This document shows, piece by piece, positions 1 through 19,683 of a stretch of DNA of 20,773 bases. Location: the IMG/VR virus record IMGVR_UViG_3300030329_000028, positions 1 to 20,773 of that record; one strand, written 5' to 3'. How positions within the stretch are numbered: position 1 is the first letter of the stretch; every line of letters starts with the position of its first letter. The notes beneath the pieces are model-generated. The model worked only from the letters and a program-made list of their open reading frames with translations, was not told the origin of the DNA and did not search any database. The translations under genes were made by a program, and so were the position numbers. Source of the stretch: a virus.

Positions 1-272
1 AGCTCATAGCGTTGTTCCTCTAGCTTCTTTTTAGCAGTATATGCTTCGATGGCTTCTTGCTCTATACTTCCACCACTAAAAACCTTACGTAGCATTGATG
101 GGTTCTTGGCTGACTTGTGTGCGTTGTCTACATCACTGACTGCTCCCATCCATCTTGACAAGTCCTGTGACATGGCTTCCAAGTCTCGCCCTGCTTGGAA
201 CATACGCTTGATGTTGGAAAAGGCTGCAGATGCTACACTAAGACTTGCTGATATGGTAACAGGGTCAAACAC
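1..272 (-). CDS. Partial conserved phage protein (3' end cut by window edge), GTG start
   Basis: An open frame runs from a GTG at 272-270 to the left edge with no stop, giving 90 complete codons. The peptide begins (M)FDPVTISASLSVASAAF, continues through GRDLEAMSQDLSRWMGAVSDVD, and becomes charged (EAYTAKKKLEEQRYEL) at the edge. The GTG shares one base with the TAG stop of the fibre gene before it (TAGTG), the same one-base junction seen at the three fibre boundaries behind it. This supports both the start and translational coupling. From memory, similar small proteins occur beside tail fibre genes in marine phage genomes; their function is unknown. The hydrophobic, small-residue N terminus followed by a charged helical part could suit a membrane-linked or internal virion protein, but that is a guess. 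The coding call is fairly sure and the function open. Confidence 0.72.
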   Translation of the reverse strand, partial: MFDPVTISASLSVASAAFSNIKRMFQAGRDLEAMSQDLSRWMGAVSDVDNAHKSAKNPSMLRKVFSGGSIEQEAIEAYTAKKKLEEQRYE

Positions 273-1252
273 TATCCTTTAAGCTTTGCTACTTCAGCTT
301 CTAGTGTATCTATACGAGCCAATGCTTCTTGTAATGCTTTAGTCAACAGTGGTGTTAATTTACCGTAGTCCACACCTTGATACATTGGTTTTTTATTACC
401 GTCCTTGTCAACATCTCCACCATATCCATCTTTCTCACCACTAACACAATGTGGATATACCTCTTGTAGTTCGTGTGCAATTACACCAACCAAACTTTTA
501 CCATTTGTTTGTGCAGTTTGGTCTTTCCAATCAAAGGTTTTTATTTTTACTTGTTTAACTTTTGCACTAGCATCCACATCCCAATCTTTTACATTGTCCT
601 TTAATCTGTAATCAGAAACATTTTCAAACTGTGTAGTGCCACCACTATCCACTCGTATTTGTCCTGTTTCACTACCACTTGAGTTGAATAGTCGTATAAA
701 GTCTCCTTGAGTATTACCAGACCTTTGAAGGTTGATTACACTCCCCCCATCAGCAGAAGCCACAGTTGCTCTCATATTACACGCTTGGCTACCACTTACT
801 TGAAGCACTTGTTCATTATCTATTAAAGTTTGTGTTGTTCCTATGAGAAGTCTATGGTCGTGGTCTAATCTAAAACCCTCAACAGTTGCACCATTTATTT
901 CTCCTGTTCTTGCTACTAGAGCTATACCATCTGTACTTTCTCTCAGCCCTCCTATAGAAGCACCAAAACCACTTGTGTTAGCAACTTCAAATGAAATAAA
1001 AGCACCTTCATCTGCTCCACCACCAGTGTTACTAATTCTTATGGCTTCTATATTATTACCTGAACTTGTAGCATCTACATGAAGAATAGCATCTGGGTTC
1101 TCATCTCCAATACCCACCCTATTATTACCTGCGTCCACTACTAACATATTTGTTTTATCATTAGACTCTACACGAAAGTCTACATCATTAGATGCTTCGT
1201 TAAATACTGCTCCTCCTGAGACTAATCTTGCTGTATCTGATGCTCTTGTCAT
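272..1252 (-). CDS. Tail fibre with C-terminal peptidase S74 chaperone (fourth of four)
   Basis: A 326-residue fibre-like protein. Residues 1-210 are rich in Gly, Ser, Thr and Asn and contain short beta-repeat phrases such as VGIGDENPDAILHVD and LLIGTTQT, typical of trimeric beta-helical fibre shafts. From about residue 213 an S74 intramolecular chaperone begins: SDYRLKDNV gives the Ser213/Lys218 pair, followed by GVIAHELQEV and VDYGKLTPLLTKAL, and ending in a coiled coil (IDTLEAEVAKLKG). In this family the chaperone trimerises the fibre and then cuts itself off in front of the serine. Here that would leave a mature fibre of about 212 residues. The start shares one base with the preceding stop (TAATG), with GGAGAG upstream inside the previous gene. 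Which receptor it binds cannot be told. Confidence 0.9.
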   Translation of the reverse strand: MTRASDTARLVSGGAVFNEASNDVDFRVESNDKTNMLVVDAGNNRVGIGDENPDAILHVDATSSGNNIEAIRISNTGGGADEGAFISFEVANTSGFGASIGGLRESTDGIALVARTGEINGATVEGFRLDHDHRLLIGTTQTLIDNEQVLQVSGSQACNMRATVASADGGSVINLQRSGNTQGDFIRLFNSSGSETGQIRVDSGGTTQFENVSDYRLKDNVKDWDVDASAKVKQVKIKTFDWKDQTAQTNGKSLVGVIAHELQEVYPHCVSGEKDGYGGDVDKDGNKKPMYQGVDYGKLTPLLTKALQEALARIDTLEAEVAKLKG

Positions 1253-1270
1253 TATTTACTCTCCAATGCT
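1250..1270 (-). repeat. Reused fibre-gene junction, copy B
   Basis: This 21-nt stretch is identical to 3732-3752. It codes the last residues (ALESK), the stop and the start of the following fibre, and includes the GGAGAG ribosome site for that fibre. The identity ends sharply on the upstream side. Confidence 0.75.
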
Positions 1271-2076
1271 GTCAATCGTGCTTCTATAGATGAGAAGATA
1301 AAAGAGAACAACTCTGCATATCGCACACCTAGTCTTGTCTGCTCTTTGCCATCCTCGTCTTTATATGTGCCTGATATAAACAACCCATACTTAGAAGCAT
1401 CTAGTCCTTCTGCATTAAAAGCTGATTGCACTTCTTGTGCAATAATACCTGTGTGCGTCCTAGCCTTGTCACCTTTTTCTGCAACTTTATCTTTCCATCT
1501 AAATGTCTTAAACAATGCAGATAACTTTTTAGCTACGTTTAGTTCTTTAGATGTTAAACTTGCTGTGTCTTGTTTTTCATTTTGGTCTGACGTTTGGATT
1601 GTTCCATTAGTTGCGTGTATGTCAACAAATCTTACGCTTTCACTTCCTATGTCTTTATCATTGTCTGCTGTAGCACCTGCACTATTTGTAGGAACGACAT
1701 TGTTACCAACAAACTTTATTCCAGTGGAAGTGTGTGCTATAAAAAATTCTCCATTAATACCAATACTTCCTATAGTACTGCCGTCTTTACGCAAGTCTAT
1801 TATTGTTCCATCACTGCTTGTTCTGTTTAAAAATGCACAAGCATCACCACTAACTGTTGCAAGAAGTTCTCCACTAGCTTTTAACTCAGCACCAACAGTT
1901 CCTATACCTGTTGATGACTTGGCTACTAATAGATGCCCATTTGTGTCAATAGTGACTCTATCACTACCACCTCCCTTGAAATGTATGGTATCATCTGTGT
2001 CAGCAGTTATGCTAGTATCACCGTCAGCATCAAGCTTTAACTCTTGTCCACCTAATTGTACATTACTTCGTGTCAT
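1252..2076 (-). CDS. Tail fibre with C-terminal peptidase S74 chaperone (third of four)
   Basis: The shortest of the four S74 fibres, 274 residues. The N terminus MTRSNVQLGGQELKLDADGD resembles the MTRASDTARLVSGG start of the next fibre, suggesting a common way of attaching to the tail. Residues 20-160 are beta-rich shaft-like sequence. The chaperone starts near residue 163: SDQNEKQDT supplies Ser163/Lys168, followed by TGIIAQEVQSAF, VRYAELFSFIFSSI and the terminal coiled coil EARLTALESK. Self-cleavage as known for the family would leave only about 162 residues, a very short fibre or a tip domain. A good ribosome site (GGAGGA) lies in the last codons of the preceding gene, and the ATG overlaps its stop by one base. 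The identity of the C-terminal domain is secure; the binding target is unknown. Confidence 0.88.
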   Translation of the reverse strand: MTRSNVQLGGQELKLDADGDTSITADTDDTIHFKGGGSDRVTIDTNGHLLVAKSSTGIGTVGAELKASGELLATVSGDACAFLNRTSSDGTIIDLRKDGSTIGSIGINGEFFIAHTSTGIKFVGNNVVPTNSAGATADNDKDIGSESVRFVDIHATNGTIQTSDQNEKQDTASLTSKELNVAKKLSALFKTFRWKDKVAEKGDKARTHTGIIAQEVQSAFNAEGLDASKYGLFISGTYKDEDGKEQTRLGVRYAELFSFIFSSIEARLTALESK

Positions 2077-3734
2077 TAACCGTCCTCCAACTTCTTGATA
2101 CGAGCTTCTAGTGCATCGTTCTTTGCTGATAATTCTTTGATTGCATTTACAAGAACAGGCACGAGTCTTTCATATTTCATTCCATACCTTTGTTCATCTT
2201 CTGTAAGGTTACAGGTCAACATAGTGTCTGGACTATCTCCAAAGCCATTTGCTTTTTCTACTTCAAGAACTTCTTGTGCAACAAATCCTATGTGTACTTT
2301 TGACTGTTTTTTGCTTCCATTAGGTGTACCTAAAGGCTCTTCTTCTGTTCCGTACCATGAACGTTTATCCCACTTATAGGTAACAGGACGTAAATCTTTA
2401 ATCCAGTTTAGCCCTATGTTAAAGTCTGTAATGTCAGCCTTATCCCTAGAGTCTGAAGATGAAATAGAGGTATCTGCACAAAAGAAATCATTAATATCAT
2501 CATCACCTAAACAAATAGTGTCACTGCCACTATTAATATTACCACTAGGAGATGATGCCCTTCCTGCCTGATGTCCAACCATTATATTATTATTACCAGA
2601 GGTAAGATTAAATCCTGCTTCCCAACCTACAGCAACATTCTTACTACCAGTCTGAGTTGAGTCACCCCCTGCTTTACCACCTATAAATGTATTCTTTTCT
2701 CCAGTCGTGCAACCATTTCCTGCTAATGCACCAACAGCAGTGTTAAAAGAATCTTGAGAAGAAGTAAAATTTTGATTCTCTAAAGCTTGATCACCTATAG
2801 CAACAGAATTATCGCCTTGTGTATCTGAGGTTAATGCTTTATACCCCATAGCCACATTGCTAGTTCCTACAGTTATGGCATCACCTGATTCACTACCAAT
2901 AAAATTATTAAACTTACCTGTTGTAACAGCACTACCTGCATTATGACCAACTGCTACATTGTGAGCATCAGTAGAGGAGGTAAAGTTTTGAGCATCTAAA
3001 GCTCCTACACCTATCGCTACAGTTTTATTACCTTTGGTGTCTGCACCTAATGCTCCCCATCCAATAGCAATATTAAAGTCAGCATCCGTAAGTGCATCAC
3101 CTGCTGTAGCTCCCATTATAGTGTTTTCTCTGCCTGTTGTTATAGATGTACCTGCGTTATACCCTACTGCTGTATTTTGTGAGTCTAAACCTGCATTAAG
3201 GGTTTTTAATGCACGATAGCCAACTGCAACATTTTGTCCATTTGCATCCTCTGTAGCAAGTGCTTCAAAGCCTACAGCTACGTTGGCATCACCTGTTGTC
3301 AAGGCTGTACCTGCTTCGTTGCCTACTAGAGTATTTTCATTACCACCTGATGCAATAGCATCTCCTGCATTTTTACCTGCAATAAAGTTATCTGTACCTA
3401 GTGTGCCTGAGTCATGTCTTACATAACGGCTATCACTATCTGTTCTACTGAAGAAGTTAGCTGCAGAGAACGCATCATACACAATTATCTCTATGACATC
3501 ATCTGCTGTAGCACCTGTACCCAACACAACGGATGTACCTGATGTAGCTGTGTAGTCGTTGCCACCACCTTTTAAGAGGACTCCATTCTGATACACATCA
3601 ACGAAATTATTATCAGTATAATTTAGCGTGAGATTAGCTGTGTCAGTACCACTGAATGTAGTCTGACTAGCAGTTGCTGTGTACTGATATCTTTGTCTAA
3701 CCCCAAATGAAGGGCTTTTTCCTAAATACGGCAT
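2076..3734 (-). CDS. Tail fibre with YadA-head-like repeats and C-terminal peptidase S74 chaperone (second of four)
   Basis: A 552-residue fibre in three parts. Residues 1-95 form a beta module (VDVYQNGVLL, DDVIEIIVYDAF) that also starts the neighbouring 446-residue fibre and probably docks to the tail. Residues 116-392 hold about fifteen short repeats of the type N-x-A-V-G-x-x-A-G (NVAVGFEAL, NTAVGYNAG, NIAIGWGAL, NVAVGHNAG), the pattern of the YadA/Hia-type left-handed beta-roll head of trimeric autotransporter adhesins. From residue 427 an S74 chaperone follows: SDSRDKADI gives Ser427/Lys432, then HIGFVAQEV, MKYERLVPVLVNAI and a coiled coil (ALEARIKKLEDG). The position before the lysine is Asp rather than the usual Leu. 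The start overlaps the preceding stop by one base. The architecture suggests a self-trimerising surface adhesin. Confidence 0.9.
   Translation of the reverse strand: MPYLGKSPSFGVRQRYQYTATASQTTFSGTDTANLTLNYTDNNFVDVYQNGVLLKGGGNDYTATSGTSVVLGTGATADDVIEIIVYDAFSAANFFSRTDSDSRYVRHDSGTLGTDNFIAGKNAGDAIASGGNENTLVGNEAGTALTTGDANVAVGFEALATEDANGQNVAVGYRALKTLNAGLDSQNTAVGYNAGTSITTGRENTIMGATAGDALTDADFNIAIGWGALGADTKGNKTVAIGVGALDAQNFTSSTDAHNVAVGHNAGSAVTTGKFNNFIGSESGDAITVGTSNVAMGYKALTSDTQGDNSVAIGDQALENQNFTSSQDSFNTAVGALAGNGCTTGEKNTFIGGKAGGDSTQTGSKNVAVGWEAGFNLTSGNNNIMVGHQAGRASSPSGNINSGSDTICLGDDDINDFFCADTSISSSDSRDKADITDFNIGLNWIKDLRPVTYKWDKRSWYGTEEEPLGTPNGSKKQSKVHIGFVAQEVLEVEKANGFGDSPDTMLTCNLTEDEQRYGMKYERLVPVLVNAIKELSAKNDALEARIKKLEDG
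2655..2831 (-). repeat. 59-residue long-period repeat in the YadA-like fibre, second copy
   Basis: Codes residues 302-360 of the 552-residue fibre, aligned to residues 230-288 with the shared phrase QNFTSS and the same order of N-x-A-V-G turns. Each copy contains about four short repeats, showing growth by duplication of a larger block. Confidence 0.7.
2871..3047 (-). repeat. 59-residue long-period repeat in the YadA-like fibre, first copy
   Basis: Codes residues 230-288. Partner of 2655-2831, separated from it by a 13-residue turn. Confidence 0.7.
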
Positions 3735-3752
3735 TATTTACTCTCCAATGCT
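3732..3752 (-). repeat. Reused fibre-gene junction, copy A
   Basis: Identical 21 nt to 1250-1270, at the boundary between the first and second S74 fibre genes. It contains the ALESK codons, the TAATG stop/start overlap and GGAGAG. See copy B for the other boundary. Confidence 0.75.
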
Positions 3753-5074
3753 TTCACTTTTTCTTTAAGTGTGTCTATTTCAGCTTCAAGTGCTTCAATA
3801 TTTTCTTGTGCTTTTTGTAAAGCTGATAACAGAACTGGTATTGTTTCTGTATATTTCATACAAAGCTTATCGTTTTGGTCTTTATCAATAACCTCTGGAT
3901 AATTTGTCTGCCAATCTTGAGCAATGAAACCTATACGTTTTTTATCGTCTTGATAATTAATTCCATTCAAAGTCCAATCTTTATAATTAAAAGTTACTGC
4001 TCTTAAATTTTTTATGTTGTCGTAACTCTCTTGTTTATTGAACTCGATAATATTTTCTTTAAGAGTTTCATCTGAAGATGCTGTAAAAGCTGTGCTATTA
4101 ACTGGTAAATGACAACCAACACCACTTTGTACTGCAAATTCTGCAACCTTCGTTGCTTGACCTGATGGTGCAAAAAATCTAAAAGCAGTAGAAGTATCTA
4201 CACCAGTATTTGCATTTATTCTGCCTACTGATGTAAGTCTCATGCGTTCATCTCCACCTGTTTTAAAAGCCATATCATCCGAACTATTAATATAACTTAT
4301 TTGTCCTCTGTCAGCGTCACCTGTGTCACCCATGTTTATAAAAGATGTGCCACTTGTTGAACTTGTAAGTTGCAAACTTCCGTTGCCACTTGAGTCTTCA
4401 ACGTGTAAGAGAGTTGCAGGAGAAGTCGTGCCAATACCTACTCTGCCACCTTCTGACATATCAATACGCATGGCTTCAATACCACTGCCACCATCGCTAC
4501 CTTTAAAAATTATATCTCCATCAGAAATTGCAGACTCAAAGGTTAAATTAGCAGGTGTTGCTTCTGTTTGAACTTGACCAAAAGTAGTGCCATTTTTTGC
4601 AAAGAAAATCTGTTGACCATTAGCATCAAGTTTTATATCTCCTGCAACATCTATTGTTAAATCACCACTAGATAAGTCAATTTCAGTTCCGTCTATTGTG
4701 ATGTTGTCAACAGTGACACCTGCGTTAGCAGTAACTGCACCTGTAACACCTAGTGTGCCAGAGATACTAGCATTACCTGTGTAACTAGCTAGACTACCGT
4801 CAGGTGGTGTTACCGTCTGCACAGCAGAGCCTAAGAACACCACGTAGCATGAGTCTGTACTTGCCACTGCTGCAGAAAATGTAATTGTCGTGCCAGACGC
4901 TGTGTAAGACTTACCAGAGCCTTCTTCCTGTTTTACGTTGTTGATATATACAAGAAGCTCTTTGCCGTTTGCTACGGCTCTATCAAGCGTATAGCCTGTA
5001 CTACCGTCACCTGTTATGGTTTGCGTTACAAACGCTTGAAACTGTGTGGCTAGTTCATTACCAATGTAAGGCAT
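3734..5074 (-). CDS. Tail fibre with C-terminal peptidase S74 chaperone (first of four)
   Basis: A 446-residue fibre protein. The N-terminal 95 residues (MPYIGNELATQFQAF, LLVYINNVKQEEGSGKSY, SCYVVFLGSAV) look like the tail-attachment module common in marine podovirus fibres. The middle is beta-repeat shaft (IDLSSGDLTIDVAGDIKL, VGIGTTSPATLLHVED). The S74 chaperone begins at about residue 334: SDETLKENI with Ser334/Lys339, then RIGFIAQDW, MKYTETIPVLLSALQ and a long coiled coil to the end (IEALEAEIDTLKEKVKALESK region). Autocleavage would release about 113 residues. One base separates it from the preceding stop (TAATATG), and GGAG stands upstream. Its last codons overlap the ribosome site and start of the next fibre, so the fibres are probably translated together. 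Confidence 0.9.
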   Translation of the reverse strand: MPYIGNELATQFQAFVTQTITGDGSTGYTLDRAVANGKELLVYINNVKQEEGSGKSYTASGTTITFSAAVASTDSCYVVFLGSAVQTVTPPDGSLASYTGNASISGTLGVTGAVTANAGVTVDNITIDGTEIDLSSGDLTIDVAGDIKLDANGQQIFFAKNGTTFGQVQTEATPANLTFESAISDGDIIFKGSDGGSGIEAMRIDMSEGGRVGIGTTSPATLLHVEDSSGNGSLQLTSSTSGTSFINMGDTGDADRGQISYINSSDDMAFKTGGDERMRLTSVGRINANTGVDTSTAFRFFAPSGQATKVAEFAVQSGVGCHLPVNSTAFTASSDETLKENIIEFNKQESYDNIKNLRAVTFNYKDWTLNGINYQDDKKRIGFIAQDWQTNYPEVIDKDQNDKLCMKYTETIPVLLSALQKAQENIEALEAEIDTLKEKVKALESK

Positions 5075-15817: not shown

Positions 15818-16048
15818 CTAGGTCTTTCCGTTTGCGTTTACACTATCCCTTAGTTGTCGCAATCGTCTTAGCATTAAAATAGCACCTTGTGATCTATGCA
15901 GTATAACTAAATCGTTTGTCTGCTCCATAACTGCGTGATTTTGTGCTATTAAAAAATTTATATAATCATTGAAGCTGTCCCATTGGTCCTTGTTGTTGAC
16001 CAACGGCTTGAGCTTGCTGAGTAGCTTGTCCTGTAGGTTGTTCTGCAT
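15818..16048 (-). CDS. Small helical protein overlapping the portal 3' end
   Basis: A 76-residue protein beginning MQNNLQDKLLSKLKPLVNN, then KDQWDSFNDYINFLIAQ and ILMLRRLRQLRDSVN. It appears wholly alpha-helical and amphipathic. I remember similar small proteins following portal genes in marine phages, which supports it as real. The first 27 codons lie in another frame inside the portal gene (15966-16048), where the portal codes only Gln/Gly/Ala-rich sequence. The ribosome site is poor: AGGA sits one base from the ATG, with GGA further up, so it may be translated by coupling to the portal. Function is unknown; a portal-bound assembly factor is a possible guess. Confidence 0.78.
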   Translation of the reverse strand: MQNNLQDKLLSKLKPLVNNKDQWDSFNDYINFLIAQNHAVMEQTNDLVILHRSQGAILMLRRLRQLRDSVNANGKT

Positions 16049-18122
16049 TTCCTGTAAATCCTTGTTCCTGTGGCAAAGGTACTTGCCCTGTTCCTATAGT
16101 CGCACCACCTGCTCCAGTTGGATCTTGGGGATTTGCCCCTGCAGGAGGTTTCGGCTGTTGTGGCTGTTGCTGTTGGAATTTTTTCATGATCTCTGCTTGC
16201 AATGCAGCTTCGTCCATGTTGTTCGTCACCTTGTCTGGGTCTAGGTCTAGTGACTTGGCTATCTCTCTTATTACGTACTGAAACTTTGCAAACGGTGCAA
16301 GTGACTGATTGCTTGCCACTTGTAGAAACTGCATAAGTCTTTGGCTACGCACTTCGTTTGCCATCAAGCTTTCTGTACCACGAGCTTTCACTTCTAAGTC
16401 CCCTTTGGTCTTCTTGTCAAAGTTAAACTGCATGTTAAATCTAAACAGACCTTCGCCTAATGGTCTAAGTAAATAATCGTCTACGTTCTTTATAACATTC
16501 TTGATGCCACCACTTGCTGCGTTCATCAGCATAGATATACCTGATGCTGTACGTCCAACGCCCATAACACCAGTTTGTCCGTGAGCAAAGCTTGGCAGTC
16601 CTGTACTTTCGTCTGCAAGCACTCTGGCTTTGTCAAACAGTTGCATGTTCTCGTTGGCTACGTTTGGAAACTTTGTACCAAAGATTGCTTGACCCGGAGC
16701 GCCGCCCTGTCTTCTGAATATTTTTCCCGGATAAACAGAAAGGTCTTGACCCGGTACTAAGTTTGTTTCATCTATCTCTATCAACAGATTACCAGACATT
16801 ACAGCATTGTCAACAGCCATTCGCATAAAACCATTCATCAATGTTTGTGTATCGTCCATGTTCTCTGCAATACCTACACCAAAGAAGCTGTATGGATTAA
16901 GTTCGTATGGAGCAGCCATGTATGGTATCTTTGCAGGTTTGAATGGATTAAGCACCATTCGTAATACTTTACTGTTGCATATCCAGATGTTTGCTTGTAT
17001 TTCATCGTGATCTGCTATCTCTTCAGGAATATCTAGTCCCTGCTCTTTTAGCATCATCGTATCTACCATGCCCCAATACTCTAACACTTCATATCGTGCT
17101 ATTGCATGTTCTGGTGAATAGTCAGATAGATCATCTTCCCAGTATTCTTTATTGTAGTTCTCACCTAGTTCAATAGCTTCATCTATCATAGTATCTCTAA
17201 AGTGAGGTCTTTTCTTTAATGCACGTAGCTGTGATCGTGACATCTTGTGTCTTTCTATCACATACTGTGCTTCGTCCATATTGTTTGCATCTGGATCAGG
17301 AAAAAAGTTCCAGACTGATACATGTGAAACTTGTGGTACTGTTTTAAATACTGGTGAATATTCTCCATCGTCACCCCAGTTAGGATATTCTTTGTCTATT
17401 GCAAAAGGTCCTTTCATCACACCTGTGCCAAACAGAGCCATTTCAAATGCTGTGCTTCGTAGATGTTTGTTTGCGTTTGACTCTTCTAACTGGTCATGTA
17501 TCTGCTTCTGCATATTCTTTGCAGCAATCATTGCAGGACTAAATGTAATCGCTGTAGGTGTTTTACCCACACCCTCTCGTAGATTGTCTACATCGTCAAA
17601 CTTACCTTCTAAAGGTCCTAGTTTGTCCATTAGGCTTTCTTTTGTAGAACCTGCAGGTAAATCTTTACCATCACCTGCAAAGCCATAAGGACTTTCCATA
17701 TCGTCTAGTCTTCCTCGAATATTCTCTGGCTCTTTCGGATCAAAGCTTACATCTGATACCACACCCTCTGGTAGTTCTGTTGGCTCTACCGTAAGTGGAA
17801 ACTTATTATTAGCAAACAGCACATCGACTATCTGCCCATATGCTGCAAGTGTTTTAGTCTTTGTTACCTTAATAAATACTCGTGACTTTTCTGCTTCTGT
17901 AAATTGTACATCAGAACCATATAGACCTCTGTAGTTCCTGTATGCTCTTAACCACCTTTGCTCGTCTTGCTCTCTGTAGTCATCAGCTTTCTTGTATCTA
18001 TCCATGATATATGGAATGATGTTAGAACTATTGTAATCATCTTGACTGTCAACCTCTGTGTCTTCGATAGCGATTGATGAGTCATCCATAAATACTTCTT
18101 CGTCTATATTATCTTCAGCCAT
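15966..18122 (-). CDS. Portal protein (head-tail connector)
   Basis: A 718-residue protein, close to the 725 residues of the P22 portal, which forms the dodecameric DNA-entry ring. I place the start at ATG 18122, one base after the TerL stop (TAATATG), rather than the in-frame TTG at 18134. The acidic N terminus (MAEDNIDEEVFMDDSS) is followed by a helical stretch at about residues 41-70 (MDRYKKADDYREQDEQRWLR, AYRNYRGLYG) and then VFIKVTKTKTLAAYGQIVDVLF, typical of podovirus portals. A stem-like part includes MAAPYELNPYSFFGVGIAENMDD and TGVMGVGRTASGISMLMNAA (near residues 408 and 517). The last 69 residues (650-718) are Gln/Pro/Gly-rich and probably unstructured; the final 27 of them overlap the next gene. 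Confidence 0.92.
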   Translation of the reverse strand: MAEDNIDEEVFMDDSSIAIEDTEVDSQDDYNSSNIIPYIMDRYKKADDYREQDEQRWLRAYRNYRGLYGSDVQFTEAEKSRVFIKVTKTKTLAAYGQIVDVLFANNKFPLTVEPTELPEGVVSDVSFDPKEPENIRGRLDDMESPYGFAGDGKDLPAGSTKESLMDKLGPLEGKFDDVDNLREGVGKTPTAITFSPAMIAAKNMQKQIHDQLEESNANKHLRSTAFEMALFGTGVMKGPFAIDKEYPNWGDDGEYSPVFKTVPQVSHVSVWNFFPDPDANNMDEAQYVIERHKMSRSQLRALKKRPHFRDTMIDEAIELGENYNKEYWEDDLSDYSPEHAIARYEVLEYWGMVDTMMLKEQGLDIPEEIADHDEIQANIWICNSKVLRMVLNPFKPAKIPYMAAPYELNPYSFFGVGIAENMDDTQTLMNGFMRMAVDNAVMSGNLLIEIDETNLVPGQDLSVYPGKIFRRQGGAPGQAIFGTKFPNVANENMQLFDKARVLADESTGLPSFAHGQTGVMGVGRTASGISMLMNAASGGIKNVIKNVDDYLLRPLGEGLFRFNMQFNFDKKTKGDLEVKARGTESLMANEVRSQRLMQFLQVASNQSLAPFAKFQYVIREIAKSLDLDPDKVTNNMDEAALQAEIMKKFQQQQPQQPKPPAGANPQDPTGAGGATIGTGQVPLPQEQGFTGNAEQPTGQATQQAQAVGQQQGPMGQLQ

Positions 18123-18123
18123 A

Positions 18124-19683
18124 TTAATATCCAAATGTTGCGTCTGCTACAGGCATGCTATTTGTTTGTCTGCTTGCAGGATCATAATCAAATACACTAA
18201 ACCGTGGTCTTGACATTATACCATATCTTAGAGCATCATACAAGTGATCTTCTGAGTTTGTGTCTATATCTTCTGGATTTTTTTTATCCAGTGGTATAGC
18301 AGGTAGTTGCGAGATGATGTTAGTACATGTGCTAAAAAAAACCAAACGTGGTTCTTCGGTGTATTCGTCAACTTGTAATCGTCTATGTATTTCATTTTTA
18401 CCTGATACTCTACTTCCTCGACTTCTATCAGAAGGTCTAAACCTACAGCCTTTCATAATCATTTGCTCTGCTAGGCTAGGTCCTGTGTCTCCTCGTTTGT
18501 GCCAGAGTGAACTATCCAACACTCCATACTTTATATTACCGTCTTCTGCTTCTTCATCTAATATCATATCAGCCAAATCTGTAGCTAATACTTTTGATAC
18601 GTACAACTCTCTATATACTATCAGTTGTTCTGACGGAGCAACAGCAAACCATACAACGGCAGAATGACTTCCATACCCATAGTCGCATGCCCTAAACTTA
18701 ACCCAGTTGCTAGGTATATGGAAAGGCTCAACCACATGTACGTTGCGATCAAACTCGGTGAAAGCTGCTCCTTCTTTAATATCCCAATCTCCTTCCAGTA
18801 GTTGTCTTCTTTGCTGTTCAGGAAGGGATAGAAGCATTGCTTCATAATCGCCCTGAGATGCGAGGTAAGGGTTATCTGTAAGTCGAGCAGGTATAAACCT
18901 ACGTTTGAATAGTGGCTGTCCTGCTTTGCTGTGTCCTGCAGGATACTTGAGTTCTTCTCCACTTTCAATGTCTGTTGCATTAAATGCCTTGTTATACGGT
19001 GCAGGGTCTATAAACATCTTCTTGACCCAGTGATGTCCCCTACCTCCGGGGTTCGTGGTTGCTCTCATATACACTGGCAGATCAGGTGATGTAGAACGTA
19101 AACGTGATCTCATGTAGTTCCAAGCAAACGGTGTAGCCCACTGTGTAAGTTCATCAAACCCTATCCAACTAAATGCCAAACCTTGATATCGTAGTACGTC
19201 ATCATCTCTATCTAGGTATGACATCCATAGTCTTGCACCTGACGGTGCTACCCACTGCATCTTTCTTTCTGACCACTTTATACCTTTCCAAATCTTTGGA
19301 TAGAGTTCTTGACTTTTAAATATAAGTTCTCTCAACTCTTCTGTGGTGTGACGCAGTAGTAAGCCACTAAATGCAGGATGTCCCATGTAACGCAGAGGGT
19401 CTGCTAACATTGCGTAAGACTTACCACCTCCTGCTGAACCACCGTATAGAACTTCTCTTTCACCTGCTGCTAGAAACGATGTTTGAGGACCTTCATTTGG
19501 TTTGAAAATAACATTGTGTGCTTCTTCAACAGGTATCGCTTCTATTTGTATCTCTTTAACTGGTGGCTTCTGTTTTTGCTCCTGTACGACTTTCTTCGAG
19601 TTCTTTCGCTTTGTTGATCGCTTTTTCGGCATACTCTGCCCACTTGCGTAAGCTTGTAACTTTGTTCTTACGTTGTCGTTCAT
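18124..19683 (-). CDS. terL: Terminase large subunit (ATPase and nuclease)
   Basis: A 519-residue DNA packaging motor. The ATPase half shows Walker A GGSAGGGKS (residues 81-89), Walker B FSWIGFDEL with Asp177/Glu178, and a TTNPGG coupling motif (209-214). The RNase H-fold nuclease half shows the expected acidic residues in ACDYG (Asp334), YGVLD (Asp390) and HLYDALRYG (Asp483). All key residues are present, so it should be active. It cuts concatemeric DNA and pumps it into the prohead at the portal, coded directly downstream. The basic N-terminal tail (MPKKRSTKRKNSKK) lies in the part overlapping the preceding HTH gene (19556-19683). ATG 19683 or 19632 are both possible starts; neither has a strong ribosome site, and the next ATG is too late for Walker A. 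Confidence 0.95.
   Translation of the reverse strand: MNDNVRTKLQAYASGQSMPKKRSTKRKNSKKVVQEQKQKPPVKEIQIEAIPVEEAHNVIFKPNEGPQTSFLAAGEREVLYGGSAGGGKSYAMLADPLRYMGHPAFSGLLLRHTTEELRELIFKSQELYPKIWKGIKWSERKMQWVAPSGARLWMSYLDRDDDVLRYQGLAFSWIGFDELTQWATPFAWNYMRSRLRSTSPDLPVYMRATTNPGGRGHHWVKKMFIDPAPYNKAFNATDIESGEELKYPAGHSKAGQPLFKRRFIPARLTDNPYLASQGDYEAMLLSLPEQQRRQLLEGDWDIKEGAAFTEFDRNVHVVEPFHIPSNWVKFRACDYGYGSHSAVVWFAVAPSEQLIVYRELYVSKVLATDLADMILDEEAEDGNIKYGVLDSSLWHKRGDTGPSLAEQMIMKGCRFRPSDRSRGSRVSGKNEIHRRLQVDEYTEEPRLVFFSTCTNIISQLPAIPLDKKNPEDIDTNSEDHLYDALRYGIMSRPRFSVFDYDPASRQTNSMPVADATFGY

What the first reader, a model, noticed from the sequence alone, without database searches (positions are those of the whole stretch)
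15966..16048. Portal tail overprinted by a conserved-looking helical protein
Seen: the last 27 portal codons, all Gln/Gly/Ala/Pro-type low complexity, share DNA with the first 27 codons of a 76-residue protein whose sequence there (LQDKLLSKLKPLVNN, KDQWDSFND) is rich in ordinary helical residues. Inferred: the small protein carries the constraint here, and the Gln-rich portal end may be largely a by-product of its frame, a case of overprinting onto a disordered tail.
Basis: partly seen in the sequence, partly recalled or inferred. Interest (0 to 1): 0.55.

Follow-up and report, generated by a model that had tools for sequence, protein, structure and literature searches.

The report
Phage portal tail shares neighbouring gene's DNA
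In a family of marine bacteriophages the last two dozen residues of the DNA-entry (portal) protein are written in the same DNA as the start of the next gene; that gene holds the exact sequence, but its silent positions are bent to keep the portal tail open and rich in glutamine, glycine, alanine and proline, so the tail is not an accident.

Summary
Observation confirmed: window 15966-16048 (minus strand) encodes the end of an HMO-2011-type podophage portal and the start of a 76-residue protein, 83 nt, +1 frame. The small protein is a real, conserved helical family next to the portal; its frame is present in 150 of 150 assessable loci found through the portal alone, one of them truncated. It carries most of the sequence constraint. 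But the Gln-rich portal end is not a by-product. Random synonymous recodings of the window's small protein leave the portal frame open in 1,535 of 50,000 draws, and none of these reaches the observed Gln or Gln+Gly+Ala+Pro count. The small gene's third codon positions go from 10% C outside to 48% C inside the overlap. Changes that would stop the portal frame are almost absent. Relatives without overlap (CRP-738-like) carry a tail of similar length and composition from separate DNA, and non-overlapping small genes read in that frame are stop-ridden. The overlap is one clade here; a deeper, separate one exists in pelagiphages. Best reading: a portal tail re-encoded on top of a pre-existing gene, both products under selection.

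The parts
15966..18134 (-). portal protein gene (ATG start probably at 18122)
   Evidence: phrog_332 1e-84, phrog_1216 8e-37; phmmer to portal 9d83_A 3e-10
15818..16048 (-). 76-aa helical protein gene, conserved portal neighbour
   Evidence: homologues in 64 IMG/VR loci and 14 phage records; predicted helical bundle, pLDDT 91.7
15966..16048 (-). 83-nt overlap: portal tail AEQPTGQATQQAQAVGQQQGPMGQLQ over the small protein's first 27 codons
   Evidence: substitution classes; recoding tests
16059..16063 (-). AAGGA, probable ribosome-binding site of the small gene, inside portal codons for Gln-Gly
   Evidence: AAGGA within 18 nt upstream in 146 of 167 distinct long-overlap loci; third positions of the surrounding portal codons nearly frozen
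16047..16109 (-). conserved portal C-terminal motif GGATIGTGQVPLPQEQGFTGN
   Evidence: consensus GGGNIGTGxxPxPGExGFSG in alignments A3 and A5; PxPGxxGFTGN also in non-overlapping Aeromonas phage portals
15969..16169 (-). portal C-terminal region predicted disordered
   Evidence: AlphaFold2 residues 648-718 (numbered from the ATG) pLDDT under 50; no secondary structure after residue 651

Best explanation
This is a functional overlap of two real structural-module genes in HMO-2011-type podophages. The small helical protein is an old neighbour of the portal; in the outgroup and in most CRP-738-like phages it starts right after the portal stop. In the clade of the window the portal reads on through the first ~24 codons of the small gene in the +1 frame. 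SHOWN by comparison: the small protein's amino acids carry the sequence constraint, while the portal frame imposes a looser, compositional one (stay open, no Lys/Arg, Gln/Gly/Ala/Pro-rich), paid for by the small gene's silent third positions. INFERRED: the tail's own DNA, still separate in CRP-738-like phages, was lost in this lineage and the tail was rebuilt on the neighbour's DNA. INFERRED: the small gene is translated from a ribosome-binding site inside the portal codons EQGF, so the two are translated together. INFERRED: the tail is an unstructured extension of the portal crown and the small protein a portal-associated assembly factor or minor virion protein.
For: Small family has an invariant Q-G plus conserved L/V/LRD positions in phages with and without overlap. 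Synteny portal then small gene in phage records. Frame kept in 150 of 150 assessable portal-found loci (of 160; 10 cut at the portal end), one truncated. Classes, WIN clade n=36: NN 0.35, NS 1.45, SN 0.54 per site; small-only dS 5.13; portal-only dS 4.12; HMO clade n=57 similar in pattern. Non-overlapping controls: dS of the first 24 codons is 0.78 and 0.92 of the rest, so the drop to 0.28-0.30 goes with the overlap. Nonsense changes 0 over 6.8 sites (WIN) and 1 over 4.4 (HMO). Third-position C 0.482 in overlap, 0.095 after it, 0.141 in portal body (160 sequences); window alone GC3 22/26 vs 13/48, p=2e-6. Recoding tests. Same tail type from other DNA in CRP-738-like phages: median 22 aa, Gln 0.21, QGAP 0.81, last residue Gln in 34 of 42; long-overlap clade 24 aa, 0.31, 0.71, 104 of 120. 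Tree.
Against: The direct portal ratio dNN/dSN is 0.64 (bootstrap 0.28-6.09) in WIN and 0.67 (0.33-1.8) in HMO, so amino-acid purifying selection on the tail is not shown by that ratio alone. Missense changes silent in the small protein still run at about half the small-only silent rate (WIN: 30 changes over low+other 11.5 sites). Parsimony counts undercount at saturated sites. Tail loss then regain is only as parsimonious as independent losses in sister lineages. No expression data; the small protein's role is unknown and its fold matches nothing solved (best E 1.7).
Confidence: 0.8

Rival explanations
1. By-product: only the small protein is selected; the portal tail is whatever its +1 frame gives.
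For: Small-protein constraint is stronger; the tail end is ragged, overlap lengths run 38-104 nt in this clade by my start rule.
Against: Recoding null fails to give an open, Gln-rich, Lys/Arg-free tail; third positions flip to C/G in the overlap; nonsense avoided; same tail without overlap in CRP-738-like phages.
Confidence: 0.05
2. RNA-level selection: an RNA hairpin or translation-coupling structure in the overlap, not the portal peptide, fixes the small gene's third positions.
For: The window folds a 9-bp stem in the overlap (101 nt, z -1.97). Stem cells paired 0.69 against 0.37-0.50 with slid partners.
Against: All 9 pairs kept in 18 of 136 distinct loci; the C/G bias is measured over codons 2-24 as a whole and goes with loss of stops and Lys/Arg, which a hairpin would not require.
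Confidence: 0.08
3. Programmed +1 frameshifting at the portal stop joins portal and small protein into a fusion.
For: All 369 overlaps of 30 nt or more in the table have the phase that a +1 shift would need.
Against: Non-overlapping relatives mostly have the other phase (overlaps of 1 or 4 nt); I recognise no slippery codon before the stop, which usually follows a Gln codon (slippery motifs recalled); the small gene has its own start and a frequent AAGGA.
Confidence: 0.04
4. The small protein really starts further downstream (as annotated for HMO-2011 gp50), so the overlap is shorter.
For: HMO-2011 gp50 is annotated from an internal codon; 11 of 147 complete ORFs in the portal-found set have only GTG/TTG by my start rule.
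Against: N-terminal residues are conserved with non-overlapping orthologues; AAGGA upstream of the chosen start in 146 of 167.
Confidence: 0.04

Closest known systems
Overlapping genes in which one frame codes an intrinsically disordered region (hepatitis B virus polymerase spacer over PreS)
   Same: One nucleotide of frame shift, first position of one frame on the third of the other, a disordered segment over another coding sequence (passages of PMC9093120).
   Different: There the disordered spacer is thought to have arisen de novo by overprinting; here the same kind of tail exists in relatives without overlap.
De novo overprinted genes recognised by codon usage (Pavesi, Magiorkinis and Karlin 2013, PMC3744397; abstract and outline seen)
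   Same: Two frames, one more distorted in codon usage.
   Different: In that rule the ancestral frame keeps the more genome-like codon usage. Here the gene that also exists alone, the small one, is the more distorted (distance to portal body 0.517, portal frame 0.26).
HMO-2011-type podophages (PMC9038755, passages seen)
   Same: Portal, terminase and coat genes; the window's portal clusters with HMO-2011, CRP-1 and CRP-345.
   Different: That paper's main text has no occurrence of 'overlap'; the small gene is not annotated in the CRP-1, CRP-345, HTVC033P, HTVC103P and HTVC104P records.

Membership tests
HMO-2011-type podophage structural module | TerL, portal, small gene, variable gene, scaffold-like gene, coat protein in this order (order as seen in related records) | tested here: met
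HMO-2011-type podophage structural module | portal groups with HMO-2011, CRP-1, CRP-345 | tested here: met
   SH-aLRT 98
De novo gene by overprinting (applied to the small gene) | no homologue outside the overlap | tested here: not met
   homologues with 0-4 nt overlap
De novo gene by overprinting (applied to the small gene) | atypical codon usage marks the new frame | tested here: not met
   the older frame is the more distorted one
Ordered/disordered overlapping pair | one product folded, the other disordered in the overlap | tested here: met
   predictions only
Ordered/disordered overlapping pair | both products made | not testable with these tools
   no expression data
Programmed +1 frameshift | conserved slippery sequence before the shift site | tested here: inconclusive
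   codon before the stop mostly Gln, by inspection

The most novel reading that the evidence does not exclude
A protein feature was moved rather than born: this lineage lost the DNA for its portal tail and re-encoded a tail of similar length, composition and usual C-terminal Gln in the alternative frame of the conserved neighbour. Pelagiphages independently superimposed the same two genes at a different register, with the portal's GGGNIGTGxxPxPGE..F(S/T)G motif lying over the small protein's conserved YRxQGK core. Compositional selection on a disordered tail can thus be satisfied on top of an already constrained gene.
Probability: 0.5. Interest if true: 0.6.

Novelty: new variant of a known kind. 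Interest (0 to 1): 0.45.

Why it matters
It gives a natural, well-replicated case (hundreds of marine phage sequences, with and without overlap) in which sequence-level and composition-level selection on one stretch of DNA can be separated. It suggests that ordinary dN/dS logic can miss constraint on low-complexity tails, and that codon usage can point to the wrong frame as the newer one. It also exposes a conserved structural-module gene that is missing from several reference annotations of marine phages.

Tried and rejected
Family searches for the small protein: Pfam, PHROGs, NCBIfam and PDB sequence searches gave no convincing match; Foldseek against PDB best E 1.7. The direct dNN/dSN test of the portal was too noisy to decide. 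The pelagiphage arrangement was considered as ancestral (overlap first, later resolved by duplication); the outgroup without overlap argues against it, but the rooting rests on four gammaproteobacterial phages with long branches. The overlap hairpin was examined and is not consistently kept. Rows dropped: 6 loci whose best small hit was a wrong neighbour (CRP-3 gp38); loci with another gene between portal and small gene, where the computed overlap is below -40, left out of the tree and position work; 10 of 160 portal-found loci cut at the portal end; sequences with gaps in the compared columns (36 of 44 WIN, 58 of 59 HMO of which 57 entered the overlap count, 51 of 60 pelagi distinct sequences used); loci lacking the GF(S/T)G-type motif (2 CRP-738-like, 7 pelagi, 1 outgroup). 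In one search the WIN part finished and the script then stopped with an error on the HMO part; one search replaced it.

Full report
WHAT IS THERE. The window is part of an HMO-2011-type podophage. On the minus strand run a terminase large subunit, a portal (18134-15966), a 76-aa ORF (16048-15818), a 600-aa ORF, a 295-aa ORF in the place of a scaffold gene (phrog_13678, unknown function) and a major capsid protein. The portal and the 76-aa ORF share 83 nt (15966-16048), the small frame being +1 to the portal, so a small-gene third position is a portal first position.

THE SMALL GENE IS REAL AND OLD. tblastn finds it in 14 phage records and in 64 IMG/VR loci; further queries bring several hundred loci. 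Its alignment has an invariant Q-G and conserved L/V/LRD positions in phages with and without the overlap. It is predicted as a helical bundle with mean pLDDT 91.7. No family or solved structure matches convincingly.

THE OVERLAP VARIES, THE SMALL FRAME DOES NOT. Over 388 loci grouped by nearest small protein, most in each group are: window-like 83-104 nt, HMO-2011-like 65-86 nt, CRP-2-like 11 nt, CRP-738-like 1 nt, pelagiphage-like 176-218 nt; Aeromonas, Vibrio, Pseudoalteromonas and rhizobial relatives 4 nt or less. That sample was collected through the small gene, so I also collected 160 loci through the portal alone (best 80 of at least 599 confirmed in each of two searches). Ten are cut at the portal end; in the remaining 150 the small frame was found in all. 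One of them, L556, has a shift that truncates it to 41 aa. Some of these contigs are the same as in the first sample, so the two are not independent.

CONSTRAINT. On trees built from the upstream portal DNA I counted changes by their effect in both frames. Window clade, 36 of 44 distinct sequences: silent in neither 0.35 per site, silent only in the small protein 1.45, silent only in the portal 0.54. Outside the overlap: small gene dS 5.13 and dN 0.80; portal dS 4.12 and dN 0.21. HMO clade, 57 sequences: 1.45, 3.41, 2.16; small-only dS 11.46. Silent-in-small changes thus fall to 0.28-0.30 of the small-only rate. In relatives without overlap, dS of the first 24 codons is 0.78 (61 sequences) and 0.92 (39 sequences) of the rest, so the drop goes with the overlap. 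An earlier count on 44 sequences over a slightly shorter core gave 0.38, 2.54, 0.94 with small-only dS 7.11. Against my reading: portal dNN/dSN has wide intervals (0.28-6.09 and 0.33-1.8). Split further, the reduction is strongest for changes that would stop the portal (0 changes over 6.8 sites in WIN, 1 over 4.4 in HMO); missense changes silent in the small protein run at about half the small-only rate. The portal tail is held open and in composition more than in exact sequence. In pelagiphages the three classes are nearly equal (2.58, 3.26, 2.50; portal-only dS 11.04), so neither frame dominates there.

NOT A BY-PRODUCT. If the tail were only the shadow of the small frame, synonymous recoding of the small protein should give similar tails. 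Over 170 distinct sequences recoding gives 6% Gln, 24% Gln+Gly+Ala+Pro, 11% Lys+Arg and 3.3 stops; the real tails have 29%, 71%, 0.2% and none. Conditioned on an open frame the null is 14%, 32% and 14%, and in 156 of 160 loci under 1% of recodings reach the observed Gln+Gly+Ala+Pro. For the window alone, 1,535 of 50,000 recodings are open and none reaches its 9 Gln or its 19 Gln/Gly/Ala/Pro. The cost is visible in the small gene: third positions are 48% C and 5% T in the overlap, 10% C and 32% T after it (160 sequences). The non-overlapping orthologues show a much weaker swing (C 0.20 to 0.17 and 0.28 to 0.22, T nearly level) and, read in the same frame, contain on average 4.1 (CRP-2-like) or 2.3 (CRP-738-like) stops per 24 codons.

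THE TAIL EXISTS WITHOUT THE OVERLAP. After the GF(S/T)G motif, CRP-738-like portals carry 18-29 residues (42 distinct; Gln 0.21, QGAP 0.81, Lys+Arg 0.001; 34 of 42 end in Gln) on DNA before the small gene. Long-overlap portals carry 17-34 (120 distinct; 0.31, 0.71, 0.005; 104 of 120 end in Gln) on the small gene's own DNA. CRP-2-like, CRP-9/13, ctYwJ313 and rhizobial portals have 0-8 residues. On a 35-row portal tree rooted on Aeromonas, Vibrio and Pseudoalteromonas phages, the long overlap is one clade (SH-aLRT 98) and the pelagiphage overlap another (90). So the overlap is derived, at least twice if the root is right, and the portal tail was superimposed on the small gene. Loss then regain is my preferred history; independent losses in sister lineages are equally parsimonious, but in either case the tail's DNA in this clade is the small gene's DNA.

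TRANSLATION. AAGGA lies within 18 nt upstream of the small start in 146 of 167 distinct long-overlap loci, and third positions of the surrounding portal codons (E-Q-G-F) are nearly frozen, which fits a ribosome-binding site inside the portal gene. Co-translation is inferred.

FUNCTION. The portal's last ~67 residues are predicted disordered, in a model of modest overall confidence (mean pLDDT 57.7). From general knowledge of podophage portals the C-terminus points into the capsid; a flexible, uncharged tail there and a helical partner made next to it suggest assembly or packaging roles. This is inference; nothing here tests it.

LITERATURE. Searches listed no paper that I recognised as describing this overlap. 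In PMC9038755 'overlap' does not occur in the main text; in PMC6918029 its two occurrences are about other matters. Most subscription papers are not held, so this is not proof of absence from print.

Noticed in passing
L401, L403, L404 (HTVC033P, HTVC103P, HTVC104P) and L402 (HTVC115P), portal 3' ends: The small gene lies almost wholly inside the portal 3' end (191-200 nt where computed) and is not annotated there; the CRP-1 and CRP-345 records lack it too, HMO-2011 gp50 starts internally, ctYwJ313 has two fragments.
   Followed up: yes
15985-16011 minus: 9-bp RNA stem CCGUUGGUC/GACCAAUGG in the overlap; all 9 pairs kept in 18 of 136 distinct long-overlap loci.
   Followed up: partly
L409:4615-4800 (phage vB_Pun_Y3): A 61-aa ORF directly after a distant portal has a similar helical-looking ...RGKIQQIDDIL end; may be a remote member of the small family.
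   Followed up: no
L556 (overlap 188): A frame shift in the pelagiphage-type overlap joins the portal frame to the end of the small protein; sequencing error or natural variant.
   Followed up: no
L442, L449, L470: Portals with GFTGV instead of GFTGN lose the ATG made by GN; my start rule then falls on an internal ATG, so the true start there is uncertain.
   Followed up: no
272-5074 minus: Four consecutive ORFs, each with a Peptidase_S74 (chaperone of endosialidase) domain towards the C-terminus, as in tail fibres.
   Followed up: no
L399:4525-4689 (CRP-3): An extra 54-aa ORF sits between portal and small gene in CRP-3; several CRP-738-like loci also have gaps of up to 690 nt there.
   Followed up: no
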